56,669 bases of DNA from Sporisorium sorghi (taxonomy: Eukaryota; Basidiomycota; Ustilaginomycetes; Ustilaginales; Ustilaginaceae). Shown here piece by piece: positions 23,825 to 24,825 of the stretch (position 1 is the stretch's first letter; every line of letters begins with the position of its first letter). The position numbers were made by a program, and so were the translations under genes. The notes beneath the pieces are model-generated. The model searched no databases. It saw nothing but the letters and a program-made list of their open reading frames with translations, and had not been told where the DNA came from. The DNA is taken from NCBI GenBank assembly GCA_023212695.1, contig JALCCG010000140.1:1-56669 (forward strand). Direction: 5' to 3'.

Positions 23825-24825
23825 ATGCCGAGGGCAAAGATGACTGCCAGGAAAAGCACCGGCGGCAAAGCACCGCGCCCGATGACCGCTCAGCGGATAG
23901 CCGAGCGGATGAAGCAGCCGGCCCCTCCTCCGGCCCCTCGAGCACCTCCTGAGGCAGAGCCGTCGAGCCTACCGATCATTCACAACACTCGCGCTCGCGC
24001 CCGCGCCAACGCCGACAACAGCAGCGAGGTCATCGAGATTATCAGCGTCAGCGACACCAGCGACGTCGGCGACGTCGGCGAAAGCAACGACACCAACGAC
24101 ATCAACGATGCCATCAACGCCAACGACGCCACCGGCACCAACAGCACTGGCAGCACTGGCGACAGCATGGGCAACAATGACGCCGGTGACACTACCAACC
24201 CTTCCCAGACGGCCGCTCCAACAGCAGAGGAGGTAAGTCGCCCCTGTCCACTCACCGCGAGATGTGCATGCTGCTGACCTGCATCCGCCTCGTCCGCCAC
24301 AGACGGCGCCGTTCCCACAGTTCTATTCTCAGAACGTGAGGCCCCGGAATTACATCCCGCTCCACTACAGGAGGATTGAAGGTGAACCGGCCGAGGAGTG
24401 GTCGATTGAGGAGCTCGTAAGTCATATGTGAGCCCCCAGAGATGATCTTCGCATTCGAATGATTTGCTGATCTTCGACACATCTCTCTTCACAGAAGCTC
24501 CTCCTCGGCGTCCAAGTGACGCTGTCGGAGCTGCACGTGAGTCATTTCCTCGACTTCCCGGCTTTGCGCGTTCGCGGTCGCGAAAGGTAGGTTTTGAAAA
24601 GCGGGTCACCTTGTGTTGAAAGTATGCAGACCTGCTGACTGCTCTACTATCGCTGCTTTACATTGTTGTTCCACCTGGCCGTCGACGCTTAGCATCATCA
24701 ACAAGCTTCAAGAAATCCACGCGCAAGTCGTCCAGGCGTTCGACGTTGAGGCGATCACCGCGGCCGACACAGCTGCTGCTGCTGCTGCCAACTCTGCCCA
24801 TGCCGCAGATGTCGGCTCTCCTTGA
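23825..24825 (+). CDS. histone H3 tail-like protein with SUMO-interaction-like motif
   Basis: Four exons, 23825-24232, 24303-24416, 24495-24586 and 24693-24825, join to 248 residues. The first ATG gives [18 protein letters not shown]. Residues [12 protein letters not shown] are identical to histone H3 positions 6-17, and R2 and K4 also align. The match stops after R17, and no histone fold follows. Next comes a Pro-rich segment and a VIEII core (residues 69-73) followed by Ser/Asp residues, which resembles a SUMO-interaction motif. Then there is an Asn/Asp/Thr-rich linker with ND repeats. Exon 2 encodes RPRNYIPLHYRRIEG. The C-terminus is a probable helix (SIINKLQEIHAQVVQAFDVE) and an Ala-rich end. 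Function unknown; a chromatin-reader decoy or tethering role is inferred. Three introns in 750 coding bases contrast with intronless neighbours. An alternative GTGAGT donor at 24537 would shift frame. Confidence 0.78.

What the first reader, a model, noticed from the sequence alone, without database searches (positions are those of the whole stretch)
23825..24825. A non-histone gene opens with a near-exact histone H3 tail
Seen: residues 7-18 ([12 protein letters not shown]) equal H3 positions 6-17, with R2 and K4 also aligned. The modifiable residues K4, K9, S10, K14 and R17 are all kept while K18 and K23 are not. No histone fold follows; the rest is a linker, a SIM-like motif and a helix. Known: H3-tail mimics (for example in G9a, and in some viral proteins) recruit H3 readers and modifiers. 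Inference: this protein could be methylated or acetylated and compete with H3 for HP1-type or bromo/chromodomain readers. I know of no described fungal system of this layout.
Basis: partly seen in the sequence, partly recalled or inferred. Interest (0 to 1): 0.87.

Follow-up and report, generated by a model that had tools for sequence, protein, structure and literature searches.

The report
Smut gene with histone-H3 tail mimic
A small fungal protein that is not a histone begins with an almost exact copy of the histone H3 tail; related smut fungi keep the part around lysine 9, so it may act as a bait for the enzymes and readers that normally act on histones.

Summary
A four-exon gene (23825-24825, +; 248 aa) opens [18 protein letters not shown]; residues 7-18 equal H3 6-17 and no histone fold is detected after it. 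It is not an H3 pseudogene: no second copy was found, and its 12 core codons differ from the genome's own two H3 genes at 12 and 11 of 36 bases, every difference silent, an outcome seen in 0 of 20,000 neutral simulations for either gene. Proteins of the same layout exist in Sporisorium reilianum, S. scitamineum and Pseudozyma hubeiensis. Tail core and C-terminal domain are kept (75-100% and 70-79%), the linker between them is not (14-44%). In the four species R2, A7-G13, A15 and P16 of the H3 numbering never change; K4, K14 and R17 do, which points to the H3K9 site. The genome encodes a SUV39/Clr4-type enzyme candidate and two HP1-type proteins. Best reading: an N-terminal H3K9 mimic that recruits or competes for H3K9 writers and readers, carried on a helical domain of no recognised fold. 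The mechanism is inferred, not shown. New variant of a known kind (histone mimicry).

The parts
23825..24825 (+). whole gene, four exons, 248 aa
   Evidence: gene model; layout matched by P0001, P0002 and P0004
23825..23878 (+). H3-tail mimic, residues 1-18 (core T7-R18 at 23843-23878)
   Evidence: silent-only differences from the H3 genes; conserved in relatives
23825..24232 (+). exon 1 (residues 1-136): tail plus acidic low-complexity linker
24029..24064 (+). SIM-like motif VIEIISVSDTSD in the linker
   Evidence: similar motif in S. reilianum and S. scitamineum proteins, not in P. hubeiensis; 401 of 2000 shuffled linkers also hit, so weak
24233..24302 (+). intron 1, GTAAGT..CACAG
   Evidence: an intron at the equivalent place is inferred in S. 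scitamineum from P0005 against P0002
24303..24416 (+). exon 2 (residues 137-174)
   Evidence: found by protein search of the genome
24495..24586 (+). exon 3 (residues 175-204 and part of 205)
24693..24825 (+). exon 4 (rest of 205 to 248, stop TGA 24823-24825)
24396..24750 (+). conserved C-terminal helical domain (residues 168-224, introns 2 and 3 inside)
   Evidence: 70-79% identity between four species; helices in the P0004 model, block pLDDT 79-90; no Pfam, NCBIfam or significant PDB match

Best explanation
What it is (about 0.9): a single-copy non-histone protein of Ustilaginaceae smut fungi whose N-terminus was most likely captured from the 5' end of a histone H3 gene and has since been kept by selection. 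How it works (inferred; the confidence below is for this): after removal of Met1 the free tail acts as an H3K9 mimic. The SUV39/Clr4-type enzyme methylates K10 (= H3K9), HP1-type chromodomains bind the methylated site, and phosphorylation of S11 (= H3S10) can switch the binding off. The C-terminal helical domain dimerises or binds a partner, so the protein tethers H3K9 writers and readers to that partner, or competes with nucleosomes for them.
For: Silent-only divergence of the tail codons from both H3 genes. Tail core and domain conserved across four species while the linker drifts. The residues that never change in the four tails are R2, A7-R8-K9-S10-T11-G12-G13, A15, P16, centred on K9 (sequences; window). 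The tail sits at the extreme N-terminus after Met and A or P in the four species. The genome encodes two proteins with chromo and chromoshadow matches (C129, C449; partial in C449) and one with pre-SET plus SET (C324). Precedent: automethylated H3-like motifs of G9a and GLP bind HP1, and phosphorylation of the next residue blocks it (PMC9768651, passages seen); an H3K9-like RK motif is the key contact in EHMT2 modelling (PMC10611923, passages seen). U. maydis, for which no hit was listed, is stated to lack H3K9 methylation, HP1 and RNAi (PMC10126416, passage seen).
Against: No modification, binding or localisation data. H3 Q5, next to the HP1 footprint (recalled), is M or N in the four tails and T6 is S in P. 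hubeiensis. No hit from U. hordei was listed either, although heterochromatin genes are reported there (PMC7763443, passage seen), and the protein searches were limited (even missed P0004), so the co-occurrence argument is weak. Four species are few. The C-terminal domain has no known function.
Confidence: 0.45

Rival explanations
1. PAF15-like bait: the extreme N-terminus (free amine, R2, K4) is read by a PHD finger or an LSD1-type reader of the H3 N-terminus, and tail lysines are ubiquitylated or otherwise used, rather than K9 being methylated.
For: PAF15 has an H3-like N-terminus bound by the UHRF1 PHD finger with affinity close to H3 (PMC7060239, passages seen). R2 is kept in the four species and the tail is at the N-terminus. 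The genome has an SRA-domain protein and C-5 DNA methylases.
Against: K4 is R in S. scitamineum, T3 varies, residue 1 is P in the window; K14 and K18 are not kept throughout. The 561-aa frame with the SRA domain shows no PHD or RING in Pfam (other exons could lie elsewhere). No PF15715 match. No PIP-box pattern in the window protein, P0001, P0004 or P0005; one regex hit in P0002.
Confidence: 0.2
2. General chromatin substrate: the tail is acetylated, methylated and phosphorylated by several H3 enzymes and serves as a broad docking site (bromodomain, 14-3-3, chromodomain) without being specific to H3K9.
For: In the window species K4, K9, S10, K14 and R17 are all present; S10 and T11 are kept in the four species.
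Against: K4, K14 and R17 are not kept in S. scitamineum (P0005), whereas A7-G13 is.
Confidence: 0.2
3. Fossil of a domain capture: an H3 5' end supplied promoter and start codon to another gene, and the tail itself has little function.
For: The tail has clearly diverged from H3 at flanking positions; the S. scitamineum tail carries three changes at modifiable or adjacent positions (K4R, K14R, R17P).
Against: 0 of 20,000 neutral simulations leave the 12 residues unchanged at this divergence; tail core 75-100% identical between species against 14-44% for the linker.
Confidence: 0.1
4. Wrong gene model: the tail exon and the C-terminal exons belong to different transcripts.
For: No transcript of this species was available; the published S. 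scitamineum model P0003 lacks the tail.
Against: P0001, P0002 and P0004 each hold tail and domain in one protein.
Confidence: 0.03

Closest known systems
PAF15/PCLAF (PCNA-associated factor, Pfam PF15715)
   Same: Small non-histone protein with an H3-like sequence at its extreme N-terminus that is read as if it were H3 (PMC7060239, passages seen).
   Different: No PF15715 match, PIP box not found in the window protein; the window tail is closer to H3 over 6-17 (PAF15 comparison recalled, not run); different C-terminal domain.
G9a/GLP automethylated H3K9-like motifs
   Same: An ARK[S/T]-type mimic of the H3K9 site, expected to bind HP1 once methylated and to be blocked by phosphorylation of the next residue (PMC9768651, passages seen).
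   Different: There the motif is internal in a SET enzyme; here it is N-terminal, about 12 to 19 residues long, and the protein has no SET domain.
Histone H3 (smut H3 genes C6 and C261)
   Same: Residues 6-17 identical, R2 and K4 aligned; likely source of the tail.
   Different: No histone fold; single-copy multi-exon gene with a different C-terminal domain.
SNAG-domain proteins such as Snail/GFI1 (recalled)
   Same: An N-terminal peptide that starts M-P-R and mimics the H3 N-terminus in LSD1 (recalled, no call).
   Different: Beyond the first residues the window tail follows H3 itself; relatives start M-A-R. Not tested.

Membership tests
Histone H3 | H3 N-terminal tail sequence | tested here: met
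   16 of the first 22 residues identical, core 12 of 12
Histone H3 | Histone fold (PF00125) | tested here: not met
   no Pfam family at E<=10; relatives likewise show no histone domain
PAF15 (PF15715) | match to the Pfam model | tested here: not met
   no match for the window protein or for P0001, P0002, P0004 at E<=10; pure H3 tails such as P0050 and P0012 do pull the model weakly, below cut-off
PAF15 (PF15715) | PIP box for PCNA | tested here: not met
   pattern absent in the window protein, P0001, P0004, P0005; one regex hit at residue 108 of P0002
PAF15 (PF15715) | binding of the N-terminus to a UHRF1-type PHD finger | not testable with these tools
   needs binding assay
H3K9 histone mimic (G9a/GLP type) | ARK[S/T] motif | tested here: met
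   ARKS in the window protein, P0001, P0002, P0004 and P0005
H3K9 histone mimic (G9a/GLP type) | lysine methylated and then bound by a chromodomain | not testable with these tools
   candidate enzyme and readers are encoded, no biochemical data
SANT/Myb domain (C-terminal part) | profile similarity over the domain | tested here: inconclusive
   hhalign against 7 Myb domains of the genome (14 places were found; 8 extracted, one duplicate dropped): probability 5.3% over 12 columns only; best of 40 column shuffles 1.67%, reversed 0.29%; no Pfam match
SUMO-interacting motif | hydrophobic core next to an acidic/Ser stretch, beyond chance | tested here: inconclusive
   present in proteins of 3 of 4 species; 401 of 2000 shuffled linkers also hit

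The most novel reading that the evidence does not exclude
A dedicated H3K9 bait: smut fungi fused the H3 tail to a new helical adaptor that is methylated and read as if it were a nucleosome, giving a soluble recruiter or competitive brake of heterochromatin, possibly lost where H3K9 methylation was lost, as in U. maydis.
Probability: 0.35. Interest if true: 0.82.

Novelty: new variant of a known kind. Interest (0 to 1): 0.66.

Why it matters
Known histone mimics are, as far as I recall, mostly short internal motifs or belong to viruses. A cellular protein that carries a near-verbatim, selected H3 N-terminus would be a natural experiment on what the H3 tail does outside nucleosomes. It gives a directly testable peptide, in a lineage (smuts) where some species have H3K9 heterochromatin and U. 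maydis is reported to lack it.

Tried and rejected

More relatives: a third protein search with residues 105-190 of P0001 had 17 candidates and returned 3 known members, missing P0004, so it is insensitive. A scan of viral contigs found no relative (70 pattern matches). A scan of prokaryote genomes confirmed 1 of 162 pattern matches (L042); its long ORF reads to me as a bacterial SNF2-type helicase sharing an EEWSDDEVELL stretch (no domain scan) and I dropped it. Repeats near the gene are weak or low-complexity.

Papers: of the listings (15 of 65 papers listed; 15 of 25; 20 of 37; 3 of 3), none is, by title and opening of abstract, about an H3-tail mimic in smut or other fungi, the latter with the S. 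reilianum locus tag, returned no paper. Searches were for background. The library lacks most subscription journals, so this does not prove absence from print.

Own errors: the pattern was wrongly built (corrected); the codon comparison used the wrong strand of L002 and is void (redone); alignment A3 misplaced exon 1 and was not used further.

Full report
What is there. The plus strand carries a four-exon gene from 23825 to 24825. Its three introns are GT..AG and hold branch-like CTGAC or CTGAT sites. It encodes 248 aa. The protein starts [18 protein letters not shown], matching H3 at mature positions R2, K4 and 6-17. An acidic low-complexity linker follows, then a conserved C-terminal domain. 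No Pfam family is found at E<=10, a histone fold included. The flanking genes look like housekeeping genes: a PGAP2IP-type gene upstream and a NOP9-type gene downstream. GC3 of exons 1 and 2 is 0.76 each, against 0.74 and 0.75 in those two genes.

It is not a fragment of an H3 gene. The 23.17 Mb assembly has two canonical H3 genes (C6 and C261) and a third, 72% identical match (C304) that I read as CENP-A-like; its N-terminus is unlike that of H3. Two further matches are this gene itself and a weak one (E 0.24) with a stop inside. The pattern coding ARKSTGG occurs at 3 places: the two H3 genes and here (control 1). Neither the N-terminal part nor the domain showed a second copy (only best candidates are scored). 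In the 12 core codons, 10 differ from one H3 gene and 9 from the other, all silently, that is 12 and 11 of 36 bases. A neutral simulation at the same divergence never left the protein unchanged (0 of 20,000 for either gene; mean 6.8 and 6.4 changes). The simulation is simple (one substitution scheme, codon bias ignored), but the margin is large.

It is a family. Protein searches found P0001 (S. reilianum, 206 aa), P0003 (S. scitamineum, 173 aa), P0002 and P0005 (source code only; assigned to S. scitamineum because they share P0003's sequence) and P0004 (P. hubeiensis, 147 aa, named 'putative histone H3'). One search scored 7,989 candidates and listed 57 at E<=10: these five and 52 others. Of the 52, 40 carry a histone-type Pfam entry and 12 carry none; I read 8 of those 12: six look like fragments or broken reads of H3 and two (P0050, P0051) carry an H3 tail on other sequence. 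With one row per species (P0002 for S. scitamineum; P0003 left out of the count, P0005 not in that alignment), tail core identity between species is 75-100%, domain 70-79%, linker 14-44%, C-tail 12-35%. Two separated blocks are held while what joins them drifts, the usual sign of a functional linear motif.

Which part of the tail is held. S. reilianum has [21 protein letters not shown], S. scitamineum [21 protein letters not shown] (P0005), P. hubeiensis [21 protein letters not shown], the window [21 protein letters not shown]. In H3 numbering R2, A7-G13, A15 and P16 never change, and T6 is T or S. K4 and K14 are R and R17 is P in S. scitamineum; T3 varies and Q5 is never kept. This singles out the K9 site and argues against a reading centred on K4, K14 or phospho-T3. 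The P. hubeiensis tail stays H3-like to K18-Q19-L20-A21 (19 of the first 22 residues, as in S. reilianum), which fits capture of an H3 5' end better than convergence (inference).

Transcription. P0005 runs past 'GATAVE' into a short unrelated end, whereas P0002, otherwise the same there, continues into the conserved domain. I read these as an unspliced (genomic) and a spliced (probably RNA-derived) version of one gene; the contigs were not seen. The published model P0003 begins downstream of the tail, so annotation can miss it.

Partners in the genome. Two open frames hold chromo and chromoshadow matches (C129 complete; C449 partial, probably split by introns) and one holds pre-SET plus SET (C324). 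The assembly also has a Piwi domain, an SRA-domain protein without PHD or RING in the same frame and C-5 DNA methylases (10 matches; some of those contigs may be bacterial contamination, not tested). A paper on U. maydis states that this species lacks H3K9 methylation, HP1 and RNAi (PMC10126416, passage); a review says heterochromatin genes are found in U. hordei and not in U. maydis (PMC7763443, passage). No listed hit named U. maydis or U. hordei, so absence follows the machinery in one case and not in the other, and both absences may be search or annotation failures.

The C-terminal domain. Models of two relatives predict one helix, short turns and a long helix, best in P0004 (block means 79-90 over residues 81-140; whole-model mean 60.7). 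No fold match is significant. A helical hairpin used for dimerisation or partner binding is my guess.

Mechanism. Shown by sequence: the tail, its conservation, its N-terminal placement and candidate partners. Inferred: methylation of K10, reading by HP1, control by S11, tethering or competition. G9a and GLP give the biochemical precedent (PMC9768651, passages), PAF15 the architectural one (PMC7060239, passages). It is not a member of the H3 or PAF15 families by the tests made; it may still work like a PAF15-style bait.

Species. The assembly carries no name. Relatives and gene content place it among smut fungi; I recall that a size near 23 Mb would fit the genus Anthracocystis, but this was not tested.

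Verdict. Without biochemistry I rate interest 0.66.

Noticed in passing
P0050: A 277-aa protein from a 10,439-base contig (source 'ena', no name) opens with [21 protein letters not shown] followed by non-histone sequence; Pfam gives only a sub-threshold PAF match. A possible independent H3-tail mimic.
   Followed up: partly
P0051: A 212-aa 'hypothetical protein' opens with 28 residues or so of the H3 tail, then a Cys-containing, Lys/Arg/Ala-rich sequence; no Pfam family over cut-off.
   Followed up: partly
P0004, database name: The P. hubeiensis member is annotated 'putative histone H3' although it has no histone fold: an annotation error caused by the tail.
   Followed up: yes
G000 contigs C112, C439, C211: Several C-5 DNA methylase matches lie on these contigs, three of them on C112 apart by tens of kilobases; they may be bacterial contamination of the assembly, which would inflate its 23.17 Mb.
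   Followed up: no
L004 (C304:4406-4750): An H3-like gene 72% identical over the fold whose N-terminus is unlike H3, probably CENP-A.
   Followed up: no
window 23648-23690: A long CT dinucleotide run upstream of the gene, and T-rich and A-rich tracts at 23118-23137 and 25153-25185 on either side of it.
   Followed up: no
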